Assembly (NCBI GenBank): GCA_026785985.1
Contig: JAJAYX010000267.1
Coordinates: 1 to 10,149, forward strand
DNA from: Rudanella sp.
GTDB taxonomy: Bacteria > Bacteroidota > Bacteroidia > Cytophagales > Spirosomataceae
Length of the DNA stretch: 10,149 nucleotides
Reading direction: 5' to 3'
Made by a program: the position numbers and the translations under genes. Shown piece after piece: positions 1 through 10,149 of this stretch; the first letter of the stretch is position 1, and every line of letters begins with the position of its first letter. The notes under the pieces are model-generated. The model did no database searches, was not told the DNA's origin, and was given only the letters and a program-made list of their open reading frames with translations.

Positions 1-990
1 GTACAGGCCAGCCTCAACAGTGACCAGTTGGCCATCTGTCCCGGTGCAACGCTTACACTCAAGGCCGGAGGTGGTGTCAGTTATAGCTGGCAATTCAATA
101 ACCAGCCCATTGCGGGCAACGCATCTACTGTCGAAGCCAAAACGGCGGGTACCTACAGCATTACCGCCATCGACCGTTATGGCTGCGACGGGGCAGCTTC
201 GCCCCTACCCATTGGCCAGATTCCATCTGTAACCGCCACTATGGAACCCGTTGCACCCGTATGTGGCACGGCCAATCCGGCAGTAGCTCTCCGGGGCAAA
301 CCAGGTGGGGGCGTCTCTACGGTTGGCGAGTTCGGGGGCGAGGGACAGGCGTCCGTTGGGGTAGTTAACGGCCAGTTTAACCCGGCACTGGCCGGTATTG
401 GCAATCATCTGCTAACCTATACCGTCAGACCCGCGCCCTGGTGCGAGGCCGTGGTAACCCGGCAAACGGCCGTTGTAGCCCCCATTCCGACCATTATGCT
501 GCCCGATACCGTGAAAACATGGTGGGGCAACTCGTTCACCCTCGACCCTGTGTTGACGGGCAACCCCAACCAGTTCTGGTGGACTCCGGGTGTTTTTCTG
601 ACCAATGAAAACACGGCTATTGCCGAGGTTGGCAACATTACTAAAGACACCACCTATTATTTTTGGGTGATGAACAGTGCGGGTTGCGAAGCCCGTGACA
701 CCATAAAAGTGCTGGTGTTCAACCGAATATGGGCACCCGATGCGTTCACGCCCAACCACGACGGCCAAAACGATGTCTGGGAACTGAAAGGGGTGGAAGG
801 ATTCAATCTGGCCGAAGTTACGATTTTCAACCGCTGGGGCGAGGTTGTTTACTGGTCGAACGATGGATACAAAAACCCCTTCGATGGCACCCTCAAAGGC
901 GAGCCGCTGCCCAGTGGTAATTATGTTTACGTGCTGAAACCGGCACCCGGCTACCAAACGCTACAGGGGAGATTGGTGTTGATGAAGTAG
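1..990 (+). CDS. Secreted Ig/PKD-like repeat protein with gliding-motility (type B T9SS) C-terminal sorting domain, 5'-truncated
   Basis: The frame is open from base 1, so the gene begins outside the window; the TTG at 28 is an internal codon, not a start. About 329 residues are visible. The first ~240 are glycine-, threonine- and proline-rich beta-sandwich sequence with scattered cysteines, resembling the Ig/PKD-like repeats of large Bacteroidota surface proteins. The last ~85 residues (from about 730) match the gliding motility-associated C-terminal domain (CHU_C type): WAPDAFTPNHDGQNDVW, then FNRWGEVVY, then PSGNYVYVL, ending RLVLMK. In this family the domain directs export through the type IX secretion system and surface attachment. 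The N-terminal function is not visible; adhesin or gliding-related surface protein is the likely class. It ends 8 nt before a hairpin terminator and converges on the receptor gene. Confidence 0.88.
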   Translation, partial: VQASLNSDQLAICPGATLTLKAGGGVSYSWQFNNQPIAGNASTVEAKTAGTYSITAIDRYGCDGAASPLPIGQIPSVTATMEPVAPVCGTANPAVALRGKPGGGVSTVGEFGGEGQASVGVVNGQFNPALAGIGNHLLTYTVRPAPWCEAVVTRQTAVVAPIPTIMLPDTVKTWWGNSFTLDPVLTGNPNQFWWTPGVFLTNENTAIAEVGNITKDTTYYFWVMNSAGCEARDTIKVLVFNRIWAPDAFTPNHDGQNDVWELKGVEGFNLAEVTIFNRWGEVVYWSNDGYKNPFDGTLKGEPLPSGNYVYVLKPAPGYQTLQGRLVLMK

Positions 991-997
991 TCGACAC

Positions 998-1033
998 AAA
1001 AAAGCCGCCCCTCAATCCGGGAGCGGCTTTTTT
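998..1033. terminator. Bidirectional rho-independent terminator
   Basis: AAAAAAGCCGC (998-1008) pairs perfectly with GCGGCTTTTTT (1023-1033) across a 14-nt loop that can add a few more C-G pairs. There is a T run on each strand, so it can stop transcription from the + gene ending at 990 and from the - gene ending at 1064. Confidence 0.9.
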
Positions 1034-1063
1034 CACTCTACTTGTAATCTCAACCTAAAAGTC

Positions 1064-3553
1064 TTAGTTATTTGTCCCTGCCCGGTTTTGCTCAGCTGAA
1101 GTAGCCGACTGACGCTGACGGGCGGCTTTTACGTTCTGATTGCCAAAGCGGTAGGTGAACGTGGCCCGCACAACACGGCTCTCCCAACGGGCGCGAATCT
1201 TGAAATTGATGTCCTGGTAATTAGCCGCTCCCCGGAACTGATTCATCCAGAAGGGGTCGTTTACGTTCAACTTGATTGAGCCTTTGCCATCGAGTACTTT
1301 CTTCTGCAAACCGAGGCTGAATGCACCCTGTGGCTGACTGGTAAAGAAACCGTAGATACCTGCCGAGTTATACCAGCCCGCCAACTCGCCCGAAAGGGTC
1401 TTGCCGAGGGTAAACGTGTTGGACGTATAGACGTTGTAGGTCACGAAATCCACATCGAGCTGCCCACCCCGGTAGTCGGTTTCGAGTTTGTTATAAACTG
1501 CCGAAACGTTATTCTGCATTTTCCACCACTTGGTCACTGTCACCGGGAAACTCACTGTCAGGTTCACGATCTGTTGCAATTTCAGGTTTTGGGTCATCAC
1601 AAACGTGGTCGAGTCTTCGGGGTTTTGGCCGGGCACTTCCCGAATAATGATGTCGGTGATGCGGCTGTAGCCCAACGCCGTGGAGAAAGCCCCTTTGAAC
1701 ACGTGCGTCAGTTCCACCGAGTGCGTCATTTGGGGACGCAGATACGGGTTGCCTTCCTGATACGTGTACTTGTCCAGATAAAACCGGAACGGGTTCAAAT
1801 CCTGGTAGCTGGGCCGGTCGATCCGGCGGCTATACGAGATGTTCAGCACGTTGTTCGTGTCTAACTGCCGCGACACGTGCAGCGTCGGGAAGAGGTTTAC
1901 ATAGTTGCGGGATACCACCCGGTTCAGCGTGACCGAGTTGCCCTCCGAATTGGTGTGTTCAAGACGCAGACCCGCCTGGATGCTGGTTTTTTTGTTCAGT
2001 TGGGTGGCATAATTGGTATAGGCCGCGTTGATGTTTTCGCTGTAGCGGAACAGGTTGGTTTTGCCCGCGTTCAGCACCTCGCGACCGTCCACCACGTCGA
2101 AAAACTGCATGTCGTTGTCGGTGCTGACCAGGCTGCTTTTGGCCCCGGTCTCGAACTTTCCTTTTTTGGTGGGGTACACATAATCGACTTTGGCGGCCCG
2201 GATGTCGATGGTCGAAATCATGGGGTTGCGAAATCGCTGCGAGGACTGCACCTCCTGACCGGCTGCGTTGTAGAACGAAGTGGTCATGTCGTTGAGGTTA
2301 TCGGCGTTGAAGCGCGAGTAGTCGGCATCGGCAGTCAGCTCCCGGCCTATTCCATCGAAATCGTATTTGTAGTTTACGTTTCCGGTCAGGTTTTGCCAGT
2401 TGTTAGCTACTTTGTTCACCGTTTGCGGCACCAGCGTTATTTCACGATTGGCGTTCTGAATGTAGCTGGTGTTAACTCCGTTTGGCTGCTCCCACCGATT
2501 CGTAAAACCCGTTACCACGGCTCCGAGGGTACTTTTTTTGGTCAACGTATAGTCCACACCGGCACGCACATTCACGTTCTGCGACTGGTTGACCCGGTAG
2601 GAACTCTGGTCGATATACGACGTTTGACCGGCCAATGGCACCACCCGGTTCAGGTCATTGGTCTGAAACGATTTGCCATAGCGACCGTTCACGCTGCCAA
2701 ACGCACTTAGCTTGCCTTCGCGGTGGTTCAGGTTCAGGCTGGCGTTGGCTTTCTCGAACCGCCCCATCCCAGCCCCAATAATCGCCGTGCCGTTGGTGCC
2801 AAAATTTTTGTCGCGCTTCATCTTGATGTTGATGATGCCGGAGTTGCCCGATGCGTCGTATTTGGAGCCGGGATTGGTGATAATCTCGATTTTCTCGATG
2901 TTGTCGCTGGGGGTGTTTTTCAGCAGGTTCGACACTTCCTGCACCGACAGATACGTCTGTTTTCCGTCGATCATCACAATCACGCCCGATTTGCCTTTCA
3001 GTTGAATCTGGTCGTTCTGGCGGTCGATGGTAATGCCGGGGGCTTTTTCCAGCACCTCGAGGGCCGTGTTGCCGCTGGCCACAATGCTGTTTTCCACGTT
3101 GATAACGGTGCGGTCAACCTGTTGCTCGATGAACGGCTTTTTGGCCACCACCTTCACTTCGCTCAGGTTTTTCGATTCCTCGGCAATGGTCAAAGCCGGG
3201 GCGATAACCCCCAATTGACCAACTTCGACAGCGAACGGTAGACTATACGTTTTGGCGTATCCTACCTGTTGCGCTCCCACCCGGTACTGGCCGGGAGCCA
3301 CATTGTCAAAGGCATAGGCTCCCGTGGCATTGCTGACGGCCCCTTTCACGAGAGCGGTGGAGTCGGTTGCTTTCACCAGCAGCACCGTGGCAAATTCGAG
3401 GGGTTGCCCGGCTGCGGTTTTCACATACCCAGTAACGGCGTGTTTGGTGGGTGCCTGTTGCCCGAGGCTGGATTGCCCCGGGCTGGACTGCCCAAAGGCC
3501 ACAAGGCAGGCACTGACAAGGAGAAGGATGAGGGATAGTGTAACGGATTTCAT
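1064..3553 (-). CDS. TonB-dependent receptor / outer-membrane beta-barrel family protein
   Basis: An 829-residue outer-membrane protein. I start it at the ATG at 3553 because it opens a clear signal peptide (MKSVTLSLILLLVSACLVAFGQ); the in-frame extension to 3604 begins with TTG and overlaps the putative promoter. Residues ~38-125 form a carboxypeptidase-regulatory-like beta-sandwich (VTGYVKTAAGQPLEFATVLL, then GAYAFDNVAPGQYRV). Residues ~130-240 form the plug (VDRTVINVENS, ALEVLEKAPGI, VMIDGKQTYLS, IEKIEIITNPGSKYDASG). The rest is an aromatic-rich beta-barrel of the OMP_b-brl_3 type, including SYSRRIDRPSYQDLNPFRFY and a C-terminal strand near FTYRFGNQ. Such proteins import, or respond to, siderophores, glycans or peptides using TonB energy. 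No SusD-like partner is adjacent, so the substrate cannot be named. Just after the signal peptide there is a short GQSSPGQSSLGQ repeat. The frame is intact. Confidence 0.93.
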   Translation of the reverse strand: MKSVTLSLILLLVSACLVAFGQSSPGQSSLGQQAPTKHAVTGYVKTAAGQPLEFATVLLVKATDSTALVKGAVSNATGAYAFDNVAPGQYRVGAQQVGYAKTYSLPFAVEVGQLGVIAPALTIAEESKNLSEVKVVAKKPFIEQQVDRTVINVENSIVASGNTALEVLEKAPGITIDRQNDQIQLKGKSGVIVMIDGKQTYLSVQEVSNLLKNTPSDNIEKIEIITNPGSKYDASGNSGIINIKMKRDKNFGTNGTAIIGAGMGRFEKANASLNLNHREGKLSAFGSVNGRYGKSFQTNDLNRVVPLAGQTSYIDQSSYRVNQSQNVNVRAGVDYTLTKKSTLGAVVTGFTNRWEQPNGVNTSYIQNANREITLVPQTVNKVANNWQNLTGNVNYKYDFDGIGRELTADADYSRFNADNLNDMTTSFYNAAGQEVQSSQRFRNPMISTIDIRAAKVDYVYPTKKGKFETGAKSSLVSTDNDMQFFDVVDGREVLNAGKTNLFRYSENINAAYTNYATQLNKKTSIQAGLRLEHTNSEGNSVTLNRVVSRNYVNLFPTLHVSRQLDTNNVLNISYSRRIDRPSYQDLNPFRFYLDKYTYQEGNPYLRPQMTHSVELTHVFKGAFSTALGYSRITDIIIREVPGQNPEDSTTFVMTQNLKLQQIVNLTVSFPVTVTKWWKMQNNVSAVYNKLETDYRGGQLDVDFVTYNVYTSNTFTLGKTLSGELAGWYNSAGIYGFFTSQPQGAFSLGLQKKVLDGKGSIKLNVNDPFWMNQFRGAANYQDINFKIRARWESRVVRATFTYRFGNQNVKAARQRQSATSAEQNRAGTNN

Positions 3554-3601
3554 AACTCGTTCTGTTTTTGTTGTTGTCTTGTTCAAGCAAGAAGTACTGT
3601 G

Positions 3602-3609
3602 CAAATGTA
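3602..3609 (-). promoter_or_regulatory. Putative -7 element for the TonB receptor gene
   Basis: Read on the minus strand this is TACATTTG, an exact match to the Bacteroidota -7 consensus TAnnTTTG, about 49 nt upstream of the ATG at 3553. No convincing TTG lies at the expected -33 distance, so the call rests on the -7 box alone. The leader between it and the ATG is A-rich with no clear Shine-Dalgarno, as is usual in this phylum. Confidence 0.45.
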
Positions 3610-3948
3610 GGTAGTGGGCTTCACATAGTACCTTTTCTTACACAAGCGGTCTGATCGGGTGGATAAGCGGATTAGGCGTTGGAAATTGGGGAATCGGGAG
3701 ACGTGAGAAACCGGGCTGATCGGCAATGGATGGTGTAAAACTCAGGCTAATGATGTATTCCAGGAGTGAGACGTTGCACAAACAGCAAAAAAAACGGGCC
3801 TGAAAACCTAACAGTCGATATAGTAGGGATTTACCAGATTAACTCATATGTCGTTAAAATTAACATTCCGGTCATATAATTAGATGATAATCGGTATGAA
3901 ACATTTGCATACTTTGCCTACCAATTAAATTACTATTTCGCCCTGACT
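3610..3948. other. Divergent intergenic region
   Basis: About 340 bp without a credible gene, between the divergent receptor and HTH genes. It contains an A8 run at 3787-3794 and an AT-rich half from ~3820 to the HTH start. Close to the HTH gene, two TTTG motifs (3904-3907 and 3913-3916, the second within TACTTTG) could be part of an imperfect -7 element for that gene, but spacing and consensus are poor. No strong hairpin, tRNA or small ORF was recognised. Confidence 0.5.
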
Positions 3949-4227
3949 ATGGCTATTACAAATGCTCACCCCTCGGAAATAGTGACATTTTTTCACGGTC
4001 TCACCAATCAGGAAGCCTTTATTCTGGCGTATGCCCTGCTTGGTTTACGAAGTGACGAAATTGCGGGTAAACTTGGTATCACTAAACTGACCGTGAACAC
4101 ACACCGGCGCAACACAATGACGAAGTGGCATAGTACCCACCTGACTGCGTGTACTGGCAAGCGGGCCGCCCACGAAATGCTGGCCACCGTCCGCCCCTAC
4201 GCGGCCGACTATCTGCCTCATGTTTGA
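3949..4227 (+). CDS. Small LuxR-type helix-turn-helix protein, cassette A
   Basis: A 92-residue protein that is little more than a GerE/LuxR-type DNA-binding domain. LTNQE (18-22) takes the place of the usual LTxRE opening, EIAGKLGIT (37-45) is the first helix pair, and LTVNTHRRNTMTKW (47-60) lies at the recognition helix. There is no receiver, PAS or autoinducer domain, so it is an orphan regulator or the output part of a partner system. It is homologous to the HTH gene at 8494: both carry EIVTF before the domain, and 14 bases (GAAATAGTGACATT) are identical there. It has drifted further from the family than its paralogue, for example AFILAYALLG where RDVLRLSIAG is typical, so its DNA binding may be altered. 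It opens cassette A, upstream of a long inverted repeat and the lipoprotein gene. Control of those genes is inferred. Confidence 0.82.
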   Translation: MAITNAHPSEIVTFFHGLTNQEAFILAYALLGLRSDEIAGKLGITKLTVNTHRRNTMTKWHSTHLTACTGKRAAHEMLATVRPYAADYLPHV

Positions 4228-4239
4228 TGAGTTCCTGAA

Positions 4240-4275
4240 AATCTACCTACAAAATACCTATTTTGCAGGTAGATT
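4240..4275. repeat. 16-bp inverted repeat after HTH gene A
   Basis: AATCTACCTACAAAAT (4240-4255) pairs with ATTTTGCAGGTAGATT (4260-4275) over 16 positions with one A/C mismatch and a 4-nt loop (ACCT). It begins 12 nt after the HTH stop codon. No T tract follows, so it is not a classical intrinsic terminator; an operator or RNA-processing hairpin is equally possible. An inverted repeat of different sequence sits at the same place in cassette B. Confidence 0.8.
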
Positions 4276-4293
4276 AAGTTCAAATTAACCTGC

Positions 4294-4301
4294 CAACTTT
4301 G
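4294..4301 (+). promoter_or_regulatory. Weak putative -7 element for lipoprotein gene A
   Basis: CAACTTTG differs by one base from TAnnTTTG and lies 27 nt before the ATG at 4329. No TTG is found at -33 spacing. The following bases (CTTTGT...TTCT...TGTTGCTG) resemble the promoter-proximal sequence of lipoprotein gene B, which supports shared ancestry of the two leaders. Confidence 0.3.
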
Positions 4302-4418
4302 TCTTGTTCTTCTGACTGTCTGTTGCTGATGAAAACGTCGCTTACATTCTGGGTTTTGGGTTTGCTACTGCTGGGGCTGGGGTGCAAAAAACAGGTGGAC
4401 CCGGTGGTGACACCCGTT

Positions 4419-4487
4419 ACGCCCCCTGTTAGCACTACCACTCCACCGAGTGCCACAACGACGACCCCGCCGAGTTCAACAACGACC
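4419..4487 (+). repeat. Tandem TPPxxTTT linker repeat
   Basis: Three consecutive units, TPPVSTT, TPPSATTT and TPPSSTTT, are encoded by roughly 21-24 bp each. They form a flexible extracellular spacer between the lipid anchor and the folded part of the cassette A lipoprotein. The cassette B lipoprotein has only a short acidic spacer here. Confidence 0.75.
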
Positions 4488-4720
4488 AGTTTTTTTATTC
4501 CGACTCCGCCCGTTGCCAACTATGACAACATTCCTCAACCACCCGCCGGGTGTAGAATTGTCCGTACTGTTTATAAAACCGTGACGTTAATTCCCCCGTT
4601 TCTTGATGCCGAAACCATCACGATTGGCAATAAAACGGCAACTGTCCACACCAACACGATCACAACTTATAGCTACGACGGGCAGGGCCGCCTTAGCAAG
4701 GAGCGACAGCAACAATGGCG

Positions 4721-4724
4721 CGGA
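4721..4724 (+). other. Apparent 1-base deletion in lipoprotein gene A
   Basis: The frame shifts by -1 at TGG CGC GG-ACC. Inserting one base gives WRGTSGSLTYQYLPNRV, equal in length to the matching stretch of the cassette B lipoprotein counted from TTYxYD. Confidence 0.7.
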
Positions 4725-4808
4725 CCAGTGGATCACTCACCTACCAGTATTTGCCCAACCGGGTAATCACAGAAGAAGCGACTTGGCAGTACATTAGACA
4801 AGAAACAC

Positions 4809-4814
4809 TTTTTT
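4809..4814 (+). other. Apparent +1 T in a T6 run, lipoprotein gene A
   Basis: With five rather than six T the reading is RQETLFRANTFYLDSRNLG, joining the middle segment to the downstream open frame. A homopolymer is a common place for either sequencing error or replication slippage. Confidence 0.65.
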
Positions 4815-5679
4815 CGAGCTAATACTTTCTACTTGGATAGCAGAAATCTTGGCGTTAAAGTAACGACAAGTCTTCGACAGGGAATTTTTTCTACGGCAAG
4901 ATATGATGAAGATGGATTCCGTGTAAGGTATGAAAGTAGTACTGGAGGAGCCGTTGATAACTACATTATCAAAGACAAAAATATTGTTCTGTATGATTCT
5001 TACCTCAATGGTGGCTTTGGCACATTAAGTATCCGGTTTGAATACTATCCGAGTCGCCCCAACCTTCCTGAACTCACCCCTTTTAAGGGCCGAACTAGTC
5101 AAAATCTTCCCTCCAAGAGGATACAGGCTTCTATTGGTAGTGTGCTCCATCCTATAGGAGATGTTTTTCAAGAAAATTTTTACTACGAGTTTGATGCTCG
5201 TGGCAGGGTCAAACGACGAATAACATATAGCTATTTATTAAATCCTGGCTGGCGCTATCAGACCGATAATGGCGGCATCGGCATTACCGATTACGAGTAT
5301 GAATGTCCATAATGAATCTCTGAGTATCCCTTCTTAATTCATCTTTTCACATTATAAACCTTTTACGATTATGAGAACACTTTTGTTGCTCATTAGCTAC
5401 TGCTTTGCCGTCTCGGTAGTCTTTAGCCAACAGCTTACGCTCACCCATCCCCTCGATGGAGCCGTTTATCAACGCGATGACAATGGTTCGGGAACCATTA
5501 ACATTGGAGGTACGTACAATTCGATGCGATTCAAACAGAACATTGGTCAAGGTTTTGTTCGGGCGCGGCTGGTGCAATTAAATGTGAGTGATGGGGCCGT
5601 AAAGCAGGGAGGAGTCACCTATTCCATCCCGGTGCAACGCACTTTTACTGGTACATCTTATTCCGGTAGCATCGGCGTA

Positions 5680-5684
5680 CCGGC
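5680..5684 (+). other. Apparent 1-base deletion in esterase gene A
   Basis: The N-terminal frame ends VPAIGWR and stops at 5700, while the -1 frame reads GNRLEVEAIRRYRDPDPN straight into the esterase domain. One added G (CCG GGC AAT) gives GVPGNRLEVEAIRR. Confidence 0.7.
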
Positions 5685-8017
5685 AATCGGCTGGAGGTAG
5701 AAGCGATCCGCCGATACCGCGATCCAGATCCTAACATACCACCTACCTTCATTGAAGAGGTGGTGCAGAGTGTATCCAGCAAAGTGGGCGTTGGTGAGGT
5801 ATTTATCATTGGTGGCCAATCCAACGCACAGGGACTACCCAATTCGACTGGCGATATTAACATTGCCCAAAGCAGTCTGGACTACGACGGCGTAAGAACA
5901 CAACCTGTCAATGTAGGGTTAAACGCCAATCTGCCCCGAACATTTTACGAAACGGTGTCGGCCAGCAGCCTCGATCAGATCAAAGCTGAATATGTACAGA
6001 ACACGCTACGTGCTGCCCAAACACCGACTAATCAGGGGATTGCTCCGGCTGGCAACTCACTTTGGTATTGGTCGTATCTGGGCCAAAGGATTGCTCAACA
6101 GTACGATGTACCTGTAGCATTCTATAACGTTGCCTGGGGTGGCACGCACATTAAAGCTTGGGCGCAAAGTACAGACAATGCTTCTACCCCGGCAGGAGAT
6201 CCCCGGGGAGGACCCTCAAATTTATACGGTTCTGGTGCACCCTACCGTATTCTCCGGGCTGCTCTACGATTGTACGGGGGTATTTACGGGGTTAGATCCG
6301 TACTGTGGTTACAGGGAGAGACTGATGCAAAGGCAGTCAATGAAATACAAAGTTGGGGAGCAAGAGCAGTCAGTAGTTCAGATGATTACAAAAACAATCT
6401 TCAACAGGTAATCGCCCAAACACGGACAGATTTTGGCCCTGTTCCCTGGGTCGTTGGGCAGACATCCATCATTGGTGGAGACCCCGCCAATGGAATGCCT
6501 AATGTGGTCAAAGACTCTCCTATTAGCCTGCTGGTTGCCAATGGGCAATCACTGGCTGCCACTACTGCATCCGGCAATGCTGCCCTACAGGTTTCCATAG
6601 CCGGGTCGTCGGTTGGGTCACAGGTTTTTTCGGGGCCTAACATGAACAACAGTGTCACGGTTCGTCGGAGTCCGGGCAGTGGAGATCCAGATGAACCCGT
6701 TCACTTTCGCCGGATTGATTTTGATGGTAAAGATGGATTGAAAGAAGCGGGGGATGCCTGGTTTGATGTGTTGAATACGATGCTCAGTTCGCAGGCTTCT
6801 GACCGTATCCGGCCCGTGGCGCAGGCCCGGCTCGGAACAGAATTCCAAACTCTTTCTATCAATGAGCCAGCCAATACCATTTCAGCACCCTCTGGTTATA
6901 ATGTGATGTGGGTAGCTGACAACAATGGTACCTTTGATTTAAGCAGCCCGGTTGGATATGGCCAAACGATCTCCTCCAATGGTTCTGGTCGCTTGCGAGC
7001 CATTCTGACAAATAGTCAGGGCAACCGAATCCTGACACAGGCCATTAACTTGCCTTACACGCTTGTTGACGATACCAGCGACCCCGGTGGTACTCCCCCC
7101 TCTGGCTCGTCCCAGTGCAAAAACGGCAACGAAAACAGCGGGGGCAATAGAACCCCCAATGGCACCATCGTCGGCGGGTTCGGCAACAGTAGCGAGTTCA
7201 TGGAATATATCTTCAACGTGCAGACGGGCGGCAGCACTAACTTCTCTATTCACTATGCGTCGGGGGATTCGCAGGCCGGCATGATGCTGGTGGTCAATGG
7301 AACGTCCGTACCCCTCTACCGACCCGGCACGGCTTCCTGGACTCCCAACGCCGATGCCAGCACCACCATCAACCTCAATGCGGGCAACAACACCATTCGG
7401 ATTCAGGGCAGCAGAGACGGTAATTTCGCCTACGACCGGCTCTGCATTGGCAGTGGTGGCACCCCGCCACCGGGTTGTTTTAGTATAGCCCCTACCGTTA
7501 GCAACCCCAATCCGGGGTGCAACGCGCCCCTAACCCTCAATGCCAACTGTTCGGGAGCCGATTGCAGTGGCGTAACTTACGCCTGGAGTGGCAACGGACA
7601 GTCCTACAGCGGGGCTACGCCGGGCATTACCGGCCCCGGCAGCAATGGCACAACAACCTACTCGGTAACGGCCAGCAAAGCGGGGTGTAGCAATCAGACA
7701 GGCAGTGTCAACGTAACCGTATCGGGGTGTGGAGGAGGAACGACGGAGTTCAGTATTGCCGGTGTGCAACTCAATTGCGGCACGGGCGTGGTCACGCTGA
7801 GTTTGAACGGAGCCAATGGGTCGGCCATTGAGTACCGGGCGGTGGGTTTGCAGGACTGGAGTACGGCCCTGCTGACGATGCCGGCTCATCAGCGCAACAA
7901 CACCAGTTTTACGTTTTATGCGCGGCAATCAGGTGTCGAAGCCAACACCGCCTACACAACCTCCTGCGGGGGCTACCGGGTGGCTACCCAACGTGAGCCA
8001 ACCGGAGGTGGGATTGT

Positions 8018-8020
8018 GGG
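8018..8020 (+). other. Apparent +1 G in a GGG run, esterase gene A
   Basis: Removing one G joins TGGGIV to VSPNPTSGKVVARF, the start of the sorting domain. As written, the main frame stops at 8024 and the sorting domain is cut off. Confidence 0.65.
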
Positions 8021-8277
8021 TTAGCCCCAATCCCACCTCCGGTAAGGTGGTGGCGCGGTTCACGCTGAACGAGGGGCAGGGGGCCACGCTCTCGGTGGTG
8101 AACCTAAGCGGGCAATCGCTGCAAACCCAGCCAGTAGTGGGTACAGGCAAGGTGCAGGACGAAACACTCGATTTGAGCCAGCAGGCCAGCGGGTTGTATG
8201 TGGTGCGGCTGCAAACGGCGGTCGGGGCTAAAACGGCCAAAGTGATTTTGCAGCGGTAGGCTACAAGTTGTGGCGTG

Positions 8278-8322
8278 AACCCGCCGGGCCATTTCTGAAA
8301 AGAGGTGGCCCGGCGGGTTTGT
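8278..8322 (+). terminator. Strong rho-independent terminator closing cassette A
   Basis: AACCCGCCGGGCCA (8278-8291) is perfectly complementary to TGGCCCGGCGGGTT (8306-8319), a 14-bp GC-rich stem with a 14-nt loop, followed by a short T-rich tail. It lies 18 nt after the esterase stop codon and separates cassette A from cassette B. Confidence 0.9.
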
Positions 8323-8493
8323 TGGTTTGGCCCCAACTGAAGCTCAAAACCCTCTTTTTTCTAAGGGGTAGGTAGTTAGCAGGTTTACTCTTGTAAGTCT
8401 ATAGCACCCAAAAGTAAGGAATACCGATGGCTCAATAGATGTTTTCTGGTTCATACAAATGCGTCTATCTTGCCCATCGGTAAAACCAACTGT

Positions 8494-8829
8494 ATGGCTA
8501 CTGACCAACTAAACGGGCTGCCTCAAAGCCCCCCCCACGAAATAGTGACATTCTGGAACAATTTGACCCAACGTGAGCGCGATGTATTGCGGTTGAGTAT
8601 CGCCGGACAGAGCCGACAAGCTATTGCCCAACGGCTTTTTGTTTGTGAAGAAACCGTCAAGAGCCATCGAAAGCATTTGCTCAAAAAATGGCCGTACCCC
8701 GCCGACCCGACTCTTGATGGGCGAGTTGCATTCCGGCAATTGTTGCGTGTTATGGCCTTTCATATCGACTGGCTGACTGCCCGAAATATCCCCCCTAAAT
8801 CCCCCGTAGGCGGGATTGACAGGGAGTAG
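8494..8829 (+). CDS. Small LuxR-type helix-turn-helix protein, cassette B
   Basis: A 111-residue protein with a textbook LuxR/GerE DNA-binding domain: LTQRERDVLRL (24-34), IAQRLFV (44-50) and ETVKSHRKHLLKKW (53-66). There is no sensor or receiver domain. The ATG at 8494 is chosen because it aligns with the paralogue at 3949 (MAT/MAI start); the frame also opens upstream at a TTG at 8470. A C8 run (8529-8536) lies in the N-terminal codons. The last ~15 residues (NIPPKSPVGGIDRE) come from a C-rich palindromic stretch that looks inserted; paralogue A ends without it. The gene follows the terminator of cassette A, so it needs its own promoter; TATCTTG at 8466-8472 is a poor candidate. Regulation of the downstream lipoprotein and esterase genes is inferred from order. 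Confidence 0.87.
   Translation: MATDQLNGLPQSPPHEIVTFWNNLTQRERDVLRLSIAGQSRQAIAQRLFVCEETVKSHRKHLLKKWPYPADPTLDGRVAFRQLLRVMAFHIDWLTARNIPPKSPVGGIDRE
8790..8817. repeat. REP-like C-rich palindromic element within the 3' end of HTH gene B
   Basis: CCCCCCTAAATCCCCCGTAGG is followed by CGGGATT. AATCCC (8798-8803) is inverted as GGGATT (8812-8817). It resembles the CCCCTAAATCCCC-type intergenic repeats I recall from Bacteroidota genomes. Its translation (PPKSPVGG) forms the protein's C-terminus. Family membership is from memory, not searched. Confidence 0.4.
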
Positions 8830-8846
8830 GCAGACCCCTACCTTTG
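8816..8846 (+). promoter_or_regulatory. Bacteroidota-type promoter for lipoprotein gene B
   Basis: TTG (8816-8818) and TACCTTTG (8839-8846) are separated by 20 bp, matching the -33 TTG / -7 TAnnTTTG arrangement of the phylum's primary sigma factor. The -33 box is inside the last codons of the HTH gene. The -7 box runs into the left arm of a perfect inverted repeat, and the expected start of transcription (~8851-8854) falls inside that arm. Confidence 0.6.
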
Positions 8847-8890
8847 TTCTGTTGCTGAGGTATTCTGAAGACGCAGCAACAGAACAAAGG
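8841..8890. repeat. Perfect 17-bp inverted repeat over the promoter of lipoprotein gene B
   Basis: CCTTTGTTCTGTTGCTG (8841-8857) and its exact reverse complement CAGCAACAGAACAAAGG (8874-8890) flank a 16-nt spacer. It starts 11 nt after the HTH stop and ends 22 nt before the lipoprotein ATG. There is no T tract after it. It could be an operator for a dimeric regulator or, in read-through RNA, a hairpin before the ribosome binding site. Confidence 0.93.
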
Positions 8891-8912
8891 CAAGGGCTAA
8901 ACAAGGTACGTC

Positions 8913-9803
8913 ATGAAACAGCTATTGAATTACGGGGTGTTGCTGGTGTTGGCTTTAACAGGGAGTTGCAAACACCCTGTAGATGTGGAGCAGGTTAGCG
9001 AACCACCAATGCCCCCCGAAGGTTGCCGGATTGTGAAAACGGTTTATAAAAACCAATCCCCTTTTATTTTCAAGTTTGACGTTGTTGATTCAGAGAAACT
9101 TACTTTGGACGACGGGCGACAGGTGCAGGTGGCGTTGATTTCTACCACTACCTACAAGTATGATCAGCAAAATCGTATTGTGGAGCAGGTTGAAACGGGT
9201 ACAAAAGGTGATTATGCGGTAACCAAGCACTCTTATAATCCCAAGCAAGTAGTTGAATCTTTTGAAGCGTTTAAAAATGATAGGTCTATCTCTTATGTGA
9301 GAAGAGACACTATTCAACTCAACGAGCAAGGTTTGTGGACCAATTATGACAAGAATGGCCAATCGCTTTATGTCTATAATGCTGATAAACAGTTAGTGAG
9401 TACTTCACCTGAACGGCCCTGGATAAAGTACACCTATCAAAACGGCAATCAGGCAGACCAAACCCGTTTCGCCACCTGGATACAGGAGAACGGCCAATGG
9501 GTGCCAACAGACTACCAGTATCGGCGGTATGAATACAATCTGCAACGGCCTAACCTCCCCGTTGTCCGGCAGTATTTGGGGGCCGATAGCCGCAATTTGC
9601 CCACCAAAGAGATTTGGGAGATGCAACGCTCCTCCCAATTTGCCGATGGGCCGGTTTACCAGCGAACCTACACCTATTTCTACGACAAACGGGGGCTTGT
9701 GAAACGGCGTATTGCCAACGGTAAACCACTCAATCCCGGATGGCTACTCGAAGACGATCCCCGTGGTGTAGGGGTTATTGATTACGAATACGTGTGTCCG
9801 TAG
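8913..9803 (+). CDS. YD-motif lipoprotein, cassette B
   Basis: An intact 296-residue protein. AAGG at 8903-8906 is a possible ribosome binding site. The signal MKQLLNYGVLLVLALTGSC gives a lipid-anchor Cys19, so it probably sits in the outer membrane. A short acidic spacer leads to PPEGCRIVKTVYK (Cys38). The body is rich in Tyr/Thr/Asn beta-type sequence with YD-like motifs: TTYKYDQQNR (~79-88), SLYVYNADKQLV, RRYEYNLQRPNLP, and YFYDKRGLVKRRI near the C-terminus. It ends VIDYEYVCP. Cys38 and Cys295 are its only cysteines besides the anchor, and both are kept in paralogue A, suggesting a disulfide joining the ends of the domain. The motifs recall YD/RHS repeats, but copies are few and no toxin or core domain follows. 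Function is unknown; a surface binding partner of the downstream esterase is a guess. Confidence 0.85.
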   Translation: MKQLLNYGVLLVLALTGSCKHPVDVEQVSEPPMPPEGCRIVKTVYKNQSPFIFKFDVVDSEKLTLDDGRQVQVALISTTTYKYDQQNRIVEQVETGTKGDYAVTKHSYNPKQVVESFEAFKNDRSISYVRRDTIQLNEQGLWTNYDKNGQSLYVYNADKQLVSTSPERPWIKYTYQNGNQADQTRFATWIQENGQWVPTDYQYRRYEYNLQRPNLPVVRQYLGADSRNLPTKEIWEMQRSSQFADGPVYQRTYTYFYDKRGLVKRRIANGKPLNPGWLLEDDPRGVGVIDYEYVCP

Positions 9804-9842
9804 CCATCATATAATCAACTCCTTTCTTGCGCTTGTCTCTTT

Positions 9843-9877
9843 CCCCTGTTTTGGCCAGGGTTGGGGTCTTTTTGTTT
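9843..9877 (+). terminator. Weak putative terminator or attenuator before esterase gene B
   Basis: CCCTG (9844-9848) pairs with CAGGG (9856-9860); alternatively CCCC (9843-9846) pairs with GGGG (9863-9866). A T-rich tail (TCTTTTTGTTTT) follows. The stem is short, so it may give only partial termination between the lipoprotein and esterase genes. Cassette A has no such hairpin in its 58-bp gap. Confidence 0.35.
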
Positions 9878-9907
9878 TCATTTTTCACTCAACCAATTTA
9901 TTCAACC

Positions 9908-10149
9908 ATGAAGCAGCTTTTATTGCCTCTATTCATCATGCTGTTGTCGCTATCCCAACCACAGGTTGCTGCCCAACGCATGACCATCAGTCAGCCGCTC
10001 GACGGAGCGGTGTATCAGCAAAACGGCCAGGGTACGGGCCGGGTCATCATTCGAGGCGACTTTAATTCAAGATCGTTTCTGTTAGGCACGTTTTACATTC
10101 TCATAGGGCGAATACAAAAGTTGGATTTAGAGAATGGGCAACCTAAGGA
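9908..10149 (+). CDS. Sialate O-acetylesterase-like secreted protein, cassette B, 3'-truncated by window end
   Basis: Eighty residues are visible. The ATG at 9908 opens a signal peptide (MKQLLLPLFIMLLSLSQPQVAAQ). The mature start MTISQPLDGAVYQQNGQGTG matches the cassette A esterase (LTLTHPLDGAVYQRDDNGSG), and the alignment continues through FNSRSF and IGRIQKLDLENG (A: YNSMRF and VRARLVQLNVSDG). This is the N-terminal beta-domain that precedes the SGNH esterase domain in cassette A; the catalytic part lies beyond the window, so enzyme identity is inferred from the paralogue. No frameshift is seen in the visible part. It follows lipoprotein gene B by 104 bp, longer than the 58 bp in cassette A and holding a weak hairpin. 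Confidence 0.75.
   Translation, partial: MKQLLLPLFIMLLSLSQPQVAAQRMTISQPLDGAVYQQNGQGTGRVIIRGDFNSRSFLLGTFYILIGRIQKLDLENGQPK

What the first reader, a model, noticed from the sequence alone, without database searches (positions are those of the whole stretch)
3949..10149. Tandemly duplicated three-gene cassette: orphan LuxR-HTH, YD-motif lipoprotein, secreted SGNH esterase
The same gene order occurs twice in a row on one strand, and every member is recognisably homologous to its counterpart (EIVTF plus HTH; GCRIV...YEYxCP; PLDGAVYQ). Sequences have drifted strongly, so this is an old duplication kept as a unit. I know of no named system with this trio. The inferred role is a self-contained surface glycan-modifying module with its own small regulator.
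Basis: partly seen in the sequence, partly recalled or inferred. Interest (0 to 1): 0.7.

Follow-up and report, generated by a model that had tools for sequence, protein, structure and literature searches.

The report
Duplicated surface esterase and lipoprotein locus
Two old copies of a small regulator, a lipoprotein and a secreted sugar-deacetylating enzyme lie side by side in a Rudanella-like bacterium; the upstream copy is decaying, and relatives suggest that this locus keeps duplicating and swapping its parts, as variable surface genes do.

Summary
The repeated order is real: HTH, lipoprotein, SGNH esterase occurs twice on the + strand. Two facts were missed. Copy 1 is broken: its lipoprotein and esterase change frame several times. 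Copy 2's esterase is cut by the contig end.

The conserved core is the lipoprotein-esterase pair. All 13 loci of the close esterase clade (12 of 222 family genomes) have the lipoprotein adjacent; 0 of 18 other SASA loci examined do. The HTH is at the locus in all four genomes of the genus and one outside it; seven of the 12 lack it. The two window copies belong to separate lineages.

The esterase is SASA/CE20-like with CBM35 and a T9SS type A tail. The lipoprotein is predicted to be a DUF4595-like barrel. Lipoprotein genes near an HTH tend to have half-sites repeated every 11 nt before the promoter-like box, so the HTH probably regulates locally. In relatives a lipoprotein cassette has changed position, esterases are mosaic, stumps of spare esterases persist, and the HTH start lies behind a poly-C tract of differing length. 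I read this as a polymorphic surface locus. A T9SS effector with lipoprotein immunity is not excluded. No activity was tested.

The parts
3949..4227 (+). HTH of copy 1, 92 aa, GerE (LuxR-type) domain only
   Evidence: Pfam GerE 41.5 bits, cut-off 23.5; 66% identical to the HTH of G003
4244..4272 (.). Candidate operator of copy 1: TACCTA at 4244 and 4255 (11 nt apart), inverted half-site ending at 4272
   Evidence: Sequence; part of a 17-nt inverted repeat, DNA fold z -7.4; on its own the array score 3 is reached by 19 of 100 shuffles
4294..4301 (+). Promoter -7-like box CAACTTTG before lipoprotein 1, 21 nt after the operator (hand count)
   Evidence: the Bacteroidota motif is recalled, from no call
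4330..5312 (+). Lipoprotein of copy 1, interrupted (frame lost and regained, TAA at 4764-4766)
   Evidence: Two pieces match the lipoprotein profile, E 2e-20 and 2e-34; frames
5371..8259 (+). Esterase of copy 1 in three frames (5371-5700, to 8024, to 8259): signal, N-terminal domain, SASA, CBM35, PKD-like part, T9SS type A tail
8276..8321 (+). Terminator-like hairpin after esterase 1
   Evidence: 11 terminator-like sites against a shuffle mean of 7.3; DNA fold z -9.3
8494..8829 (+). HTH of copy 2, 111 aa, with a C8 tract at 8529-8536 just after the start
   Evidence: Pfam GerE 50.6 bits; tract
8788..8817 (.). Candidate operator of copy 2: ATCCCC at 8788 and 8799, inverted GGGATT 8812-8817, inside the HTH 3' end
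   Evidence: array score 3 is reached by 15 of 100 shuffles
8839..8846 (+). Promoter -7-like box TACCTTTG before lipoprotein 2, 21 nt after the operator
   Evidence: motif recalled
8913..9803 (+). Lipoprotein of copy 2, intact, 296 aa, predicted DUF4595-like barrel
9908..10149 (+). Esterase of copy 2, first 80 residues, cut by the contig end
   Evidence: Profile positions 2-74, E 1e-23; probable remainder on contig C53 (L079:26-1897)

Best explanation
The locus is a polymorphic cell-surface module. Its core is a lipoprotein with a DUF4595-like barrel and, directly downstream, a multidomain carbohydrate acetylesterase (SASA/CE20-like, CBM35) that is exported by the type IX system. In Rudanella and one genome outside the genus a stand-alone LuxR-type HTH nearby probably activates the pair by binding half-sites spaced one helical turn apart next to the lipoprotein promoter; half-site and HTH seem to have diverged together. 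The locus evolves by tandem duplication, exchange of lipoprotein cassettes and of lipoprotein-plus-catalytic blocks, conversion between copies, and decay of spare copies. The window shows two old, divergent versions side by side, the upstream one decaying. Shown: gene content, adjacency, interruptions, mosaics, cassette identity. Inferred: regulation, export and anchoring, enzymatic activity, partnership of the two proteins, recombination as the cause of the mosaics.
Against: HTH absent from 7 of 12 genomes with the pair. Both window operators score only 3, reached by 15-19 of 100 shuffles, and the motif idea came from looking at the regions. The leave-out HTH test put the G208 HTHs 3rd and 6th of 23. 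The mosaics could also come from old duplication with differential loss. The grouping of copy 1 with G003 rests on long branches that the tool warns about. The esterase model is middling (pLDDT 70.1, TM about 0.4). No lipobox, export or activity test was done.
Confidence: 0.55

Rival explanations
1. Effector-immunity-like pair: the T9SS-exported esterase acts on rival cells' envelope glycans and the lipoprotein protects the producer; spare lipoproteins are orphan immunity genes.
For: Adjacent cognate pair, lineage-restricted; divergent versions in otherwise near-identical surroundings; lipoproteins without an esterase nearby at five other places examined; a DUF4595 lipoprotein is called potentially an immune protein in B. 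fragilis (PMC11854122, passage) and the related BF9343_1936 is listed as immunity protein Bti1 (PMC7604300, passage).
Against: The enzyme class is known for glycan deacetylation, not killing. The lipoprotein lies before the enzyme. Spare esterases do not decay more than lipoproteins per unit length. No toxicity data.
Confidence: 0.2
2. Ordinary nutrition: a secreted acetylesterase for plant or algal polysaccharides with a glycan-binding lipoprotein; duplication and divergence follow substrate changes.
For: SASA/CE20-like enzyme with CBM35 and T9SS tail, as in polysaccharide degraders.
Against: No SusC/SusD pair and no glycoside hydrolase among the window proteins scanned; does not by itself explain cassette exchange or tandem lipoproteins.
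Confidence: 0.2
3. The breaks in copy 1 are a local sequencing or assembly artefact and both copies are intact.
For: Fragmented MAG, 891 contigs; one break at a T6 run, another beside a 19-nt inverted repeat.
Against: 14 other contigs read nearly normally; window 1-3900 and lipoprotein 2 are open; copy 1's lipoprotein branch is very long, 1.92; one break lies at a motif that is invariant in 10 of 10 relatives.
Confidence: 0.15

Closest known systems
SASA / carbohydrate esterase family 20 enzymes (8f9q sialic acid esterase, 7kmm XAC1771, 9ega PpCE20_II)
   Same: SASA domain above cut-off and fold matches to the N-terminal 520 residues
   Different: Sequence identity 10-16% in the fold matches; fused to CBM35 and a T9SS tail; always beside a lipoprotein gene in this clade
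DUF4595 porin-like lipoproteins (4ghb, 3tzg)
   Different: Pfam DUF4595 matches only 1 of 10 members, at E 0.0015; 18% and 14% identity
T6SS effector-immunity loci of Bacteroides fragilis (Bte1/Bti1)
   Same: A DUF4595 lipoprotein beside an effector (PMC11854122 and PMC7604300, passages)
   Different: Here the partner is a T9SS-tailed esterase; no toxicity shown
Stand-alone GerE (LuxR-type) regulators
   Same: GerE domain only, about 90-110 aa
   Different: Sits beside this locus with an 11-nt-phased array; poly-C tract at the start in one lineage

Membership tests
SASA PF03629 / CE20-like acetylesterases | Pfam SASA match above the curated cut-off | tested here: met
   39.5 bits against 24.8
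SASA PF03629 / CE20-like acetylesterases | SGNH fold with conserved GQSN, QGE(S/T)D and HF blocks | tested here: met
   GQSN, QGE.D and the H are invariant in 10 of 10 rows; fold matches. Reading these blocks as catalytic is recalled
SASA PF03629 / CE20-like acetylesterases | Deacetylase activity | not testable with these tools
   Needs an assay
T9SS type A cargo | C-terminal Por_Secre_tail / TIGR04183 | tested here: met
   36.3 bits (cut-off 27) and 44.8 bits (cut-off 23) on the third-frame piece 7918-8256
DUF4595 PF15283 | Pfam match | tested here: inconclusive
   No match for the window protein; 1 of 10 relatives at E 0.0015
DUF4595 PF15283 | Porin-like barrel fold | tested here: met
Stand-alone GerE regulator | GerE domain with no receiver domain | tested here: met
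   both HTHs
Stand-alone GerE regulator | Binds the locus promoter | not testable with these tools
   Only repeat geometry is seen
Polysaccharide utilisation locus | SusC/SusD pair at the locus | tested here: not met
   No SusD among the window proteins scanned; the beta-barrel protein is OMP_b-brl_3
Effector-immunity pair | Adjacent pair with divergent versions and lipoproteins lacking a nearby partner | tested here: met
Effector-immunity pair | Effector harms cells that lack the lipoprotein | not testable with these tools
   Needs co-culture
Phase-variable gene | Homopolymer tract of differing length that moves the start in and out of frame | tested here: inconclusive
   C9 in G001 and C11 in G002, both out of frame; C8 in frame in the window; assembly error in the run is possible
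Phase-variable gene | Switching within one population | not testable with these tools
   Needs reads of a clonal culture

The most novel reading that the evidence does not exclude
A phase-variable, polymorphic rivalry or recognition locus: a LuxR-type HTH, switched by a poly-C tract, drives a T9SS-exported glycan esterase and its cognate lipoprotein (immunity or anchor). Lipoprotein cassettes recombine between positions and species, and spare lipoproteins persist as old esterases are lost. It would be a T9SS counterpart of T6SS effector-immunity loci built on a carbohydrate esterase.
Probability: 0.15. Interest if true: 0.8.

Novelty: new variant of a known kind. Interest (0 to 1): 0.5.

Why it matters
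It names a lineage-restricted gene pair with a regulator and a proposed operator that can be tested in named species (Rudanella lutea, R. paleaurantiibacter). If the variation reflects rivalry or phage pressure, it would link T9SS cargo enzymes, usually read as nutrient degraders, to self/non-self interactions in environmental Bacteroidota.

Tried and rejected
General sequencing error as the cause of the breaks: judged unlikely. Preferential decay of esterases over lipoproteins: not significant (5 of 15 against 2 of 25, P 0.08) and absent per unit length (the counts are my own). tRNA and Rfam elements: none. PUL reading: no SusD seen. HTH family search with A5: its six best hits are the profile's own rows or a near-copy, so it proves nothing; the leave-out test was only partly favourable. 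The sigma-70-type scan found no more sites than shuffles (6 against a mean of 7.1); the Bacteroidota -7 motif used instead is recalled, from no call. In one search the start of the G225 gene was guessed. In one search the half-sites were picked by eye and the script placed copy 1 wrongly, so its distance is a hand count. The genome-contig scan gave one locus, which names G003. Seven literature searches listed no paper that I recognised as describing this pair; most listings were capped. Only passages of PMC11854122, PMC6079546 and PMC7604300 were read; the rest were seen as listings. A hot spot of esterase breaks at the GWY motif was noted, not tested against chance.
Full report
What is there. 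The window is one complete contig (G000:C267) of a fragmented MAG, 4.68 Mb in 891 contigs, 72% complete. On the + strand the order HTH, lipoprotein, esterase occurs twice. HTH 1 (92 aa) and HTH 2 (111 aa) have a GerE domain and nothing else above Pfam cut-off. The lipoprotein has no Pfam family above cut-off; of 10 members scanned, 6 match RHS_repeat and 1 matches DUF4595 (E 0.0015). That it is a lipoprotein rests on its N-terminal sequence, read by eye. The esterase has SASA, CBM_35 and a type A T9SS tail.

Condition of the copies. Copy 1 is broken: its lipoprotein matches the profile in two pieces around a TAA, and its esterase in three ORFs in different frames. Fourteen other contigs of the MAG (84,171 bases) have ORF coverage 0.877 at 150 aa, against 0.90-0.92 in four relatives' loci and 0.768 in window 3900-8300; at 250 aa the figures are 0.758, 0.82-0.87 and 0.535, and at 350 aa 0.505, 0.53-0.64 and 0.535. 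This argues against general frameshift error. Copy 2 has an intact HTH and lipoprotein; its esterase is cut after 80 residues. Contig C53 carries an esterase piece from profile position 329 to the end, 66% identical to the G001 esterase and 56% to that of G003. It is probably the rest of copy 2, but about 254 positions are unseen and its first bases hold a stop.

Relatives. A lipoprotein profile matches in 39 of 222 genomes of the family and 8 of 36 genera. An esterase query finds some SASA protein in 154 of 222 at E 1e-30 or better, with at most four candidates scored per genome. The close ones (E at most 1e-50, leaving out contig fragment C53) form 13 loci in 12 genomes, and all 13 have the lipoprotein adjacent. 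Of the less similar SASA proteins I examined the 18 loci returned (L033-L050, roughly 1-1.5 kb upstream of the gene): none has it. In a tree the 12 linked rows are one side of a branch (98/97) against 17 others; one row was dropped and 15 rows fill under half of the columns. Five lipoprotein places examined have no esterase nearby: G006 (L018), G225, G201 and G208:3999530, and G018:C7 (ORF list). Many weaker lipoprotein hits were not examined. I infer that the window's genus is Rudanella and that genus g16 is Larkinella.

The HTH. It lies at the locus in 4 of 4 genomes of the genus: G003 (one trio), the window (two), and G001 and G002 (one open HTH frame each between esterase and second lipoprotein, plus an HTH 3' remnant before the first lipoprotein). 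Outside the genus only G208 has one at the pair locus, and an interrupted one 1 kb before a lone lipoprotein at G208:3999530. Seven of the 12 genomes have none at the locus (profile at E 1e-4). A Rudanella-only profile ranks the two G208 HTHs 3rd and 6th of 23 GerE hits in that genome, so their orthology is open.

Candidate operator. In the 170 nt before 29 lipoprotein genes I scored direct 6-mers repeated at 10-12 nt plus a following inverted copy. Score 4 was reached by 5 of 9 HTH-associated genes (two of them, G001_A and G002_A, near-copies with only an HTH remnant), each with 0 of 100 shuffles reaching it, and by 0 of 20 others (P 0.001; 0.003 with that pair merged). The other four, both window copies included, score 3, which 15-22 of 100 shuffles reach. 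The best-scoring words in G003 (TAACTA) and G208_B (CAAAAG, no inverted copy) are not the half-sites I would name, only other registers of the repeats. The idea came from looking at these regions, so the test is not blind, except for G208:3999530, scored before I looked at it. In the five regions that the script placed, the inverted half-site, picked by eye, ends 21 or 24 nt before the -7-like box; for copy 1 I count 21 by hand. Half-sites differ by type: TACCTA in copy 1 and G003, ATCCCC in copy 2, AACCCC in G001/G002, TCACCCC at G208:3999530.

Poly-C tract. In G001 and G002 runs of 9 and 11 C lie between an ATG and the HTH. Both lengths leave that ATG out of frame, and the HTH frame, open itself, has no ATG, GTG or TTG between the preceding stop and the HTH. 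In copy 2 the run is C8, in frame, and the only C or G run of 7 or more in the window. Of 15 C/G sites of 9 or more in G002 (my count of the list), the C11 is second only to one of 13. In G001 the C9 is not exceptional; much longer runs are listed there. Assembly error in homopolymers cannot be excluded.

Recombination. The G001 downstream lipoprotein cassette (1,089 nt aligned, with the HTH 3' end) is 98.7% identical to the G002 upstream cassette, while its coding part is 74% identical to its positional counterpart, G002_B. Flanking blocks are 90-94% identical, two others 83% and 86%. G001_A is itself a mosaic: near G002_B in its first 300 nt, near G002_A at 481-720. In the Larkinella genus the flanking proteins of G160 are 91-99% identical to those of G163 and 90-99.6% to those of G165, except a 199-aa protein next to the locus (66% and 94%). 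The lipoprotein next to the esterase is 48% identical (G160 against G163); G165 has only the other type (74%; 83% in G163). The esterases are 56% and 61%, in sharp blocks. G163's lipoprotein and esterase are closer to G164 (75%; 78% over 690 aa) than to G160. Differential loss after an old duplication could give the same pattern. In the MAG, copy 1 and C53 are 70-91% identical in the CBM-PKD part and 30-35% in most of the catalytic part; the CBM part is well conserved in relatives too, but the PKD-like insert (86-91%) is shared only by these two among the Rudanella rows, as conversion between copies would give.

Duplicates and stumps. G018 has lipoprotein, esterase stump, lipoprotein, esterase; G208 has four lipoproteins, an HTH, a stump and one full esterase. 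By my count 5 of 15 scoreable esterases and 2 of 25 lipoproteins at these loci are interrupted, not a significant difference (P 0.08) and none per unit length.

Age. In the lipoprotein tree copy 2 groups with G001/G002 at 100/99. Copy 1 and G003 hang from one open fork; both are long branches and the tool warns of such joins. The HTH (66% identity to G003) and, weakly, the esterase tree (87/83) support pairing copy 1 with G003. If so, the duplication is older than these species.

Conclusion. I read the locus as a polymorphic surface lipoprotein-esterase module with a lineage-specific local regulator. The boldest open reading is a T9SS effector-immunity-like or recognition locus: a DUF4595 lipoprotein is called potentially an immune protein in B. 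fragilis (PMC11854122, passage) and the related BF9343_1936 is listed as immunity protein Bti1 (PMC7604300, passage). No activity is shown here.

Noticed in passing
window 8001-8043: A 19-nt inverted repeat (5-nt loop, DNA fold z -8.8) lies exactly where the copy 1 esterase loses frame before its T9SS tail.
   Followed up: partly
window 8835-8896: A 23-nt inverted repeat (16-nt spacer, DNA fold z -7.4) starts in the -7-like box of lipoprotein 2 and would sit in its leader.
   Followed up: partly
window 5690-5705; L016:9150-9152; L017:9280-9330: Three esterase copies are interrupted at or beside the same conserved GWY motif, by different changes. Not tested against chance.
   Followed up: partly
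L015:9393-9401 and L016:11728-11738: Poly-C tracts of 9 and 11 before the HTH of R. paleaurantiibacter and R. lutea; C8 tracts also lie near the lipobox of three of their four lipoproteins.
   Followed up: partly
L082:1866-10445: The G208 locus has four tandem lipoproteins, an HTH, an esterase stump and one full esterase.
   Followed up: partly
window 1064-3604 (-) and 1-990 (+): An OMP_b-brl_3 outer-membrane protein and a T9SS type B (CHU_C) protein cut by the contig start flank copy 1.
   Followed up: no
L079:24-100: The esterase piece on contig C53 has a stop in its first bases, at the contig edge.
   Followed up: no
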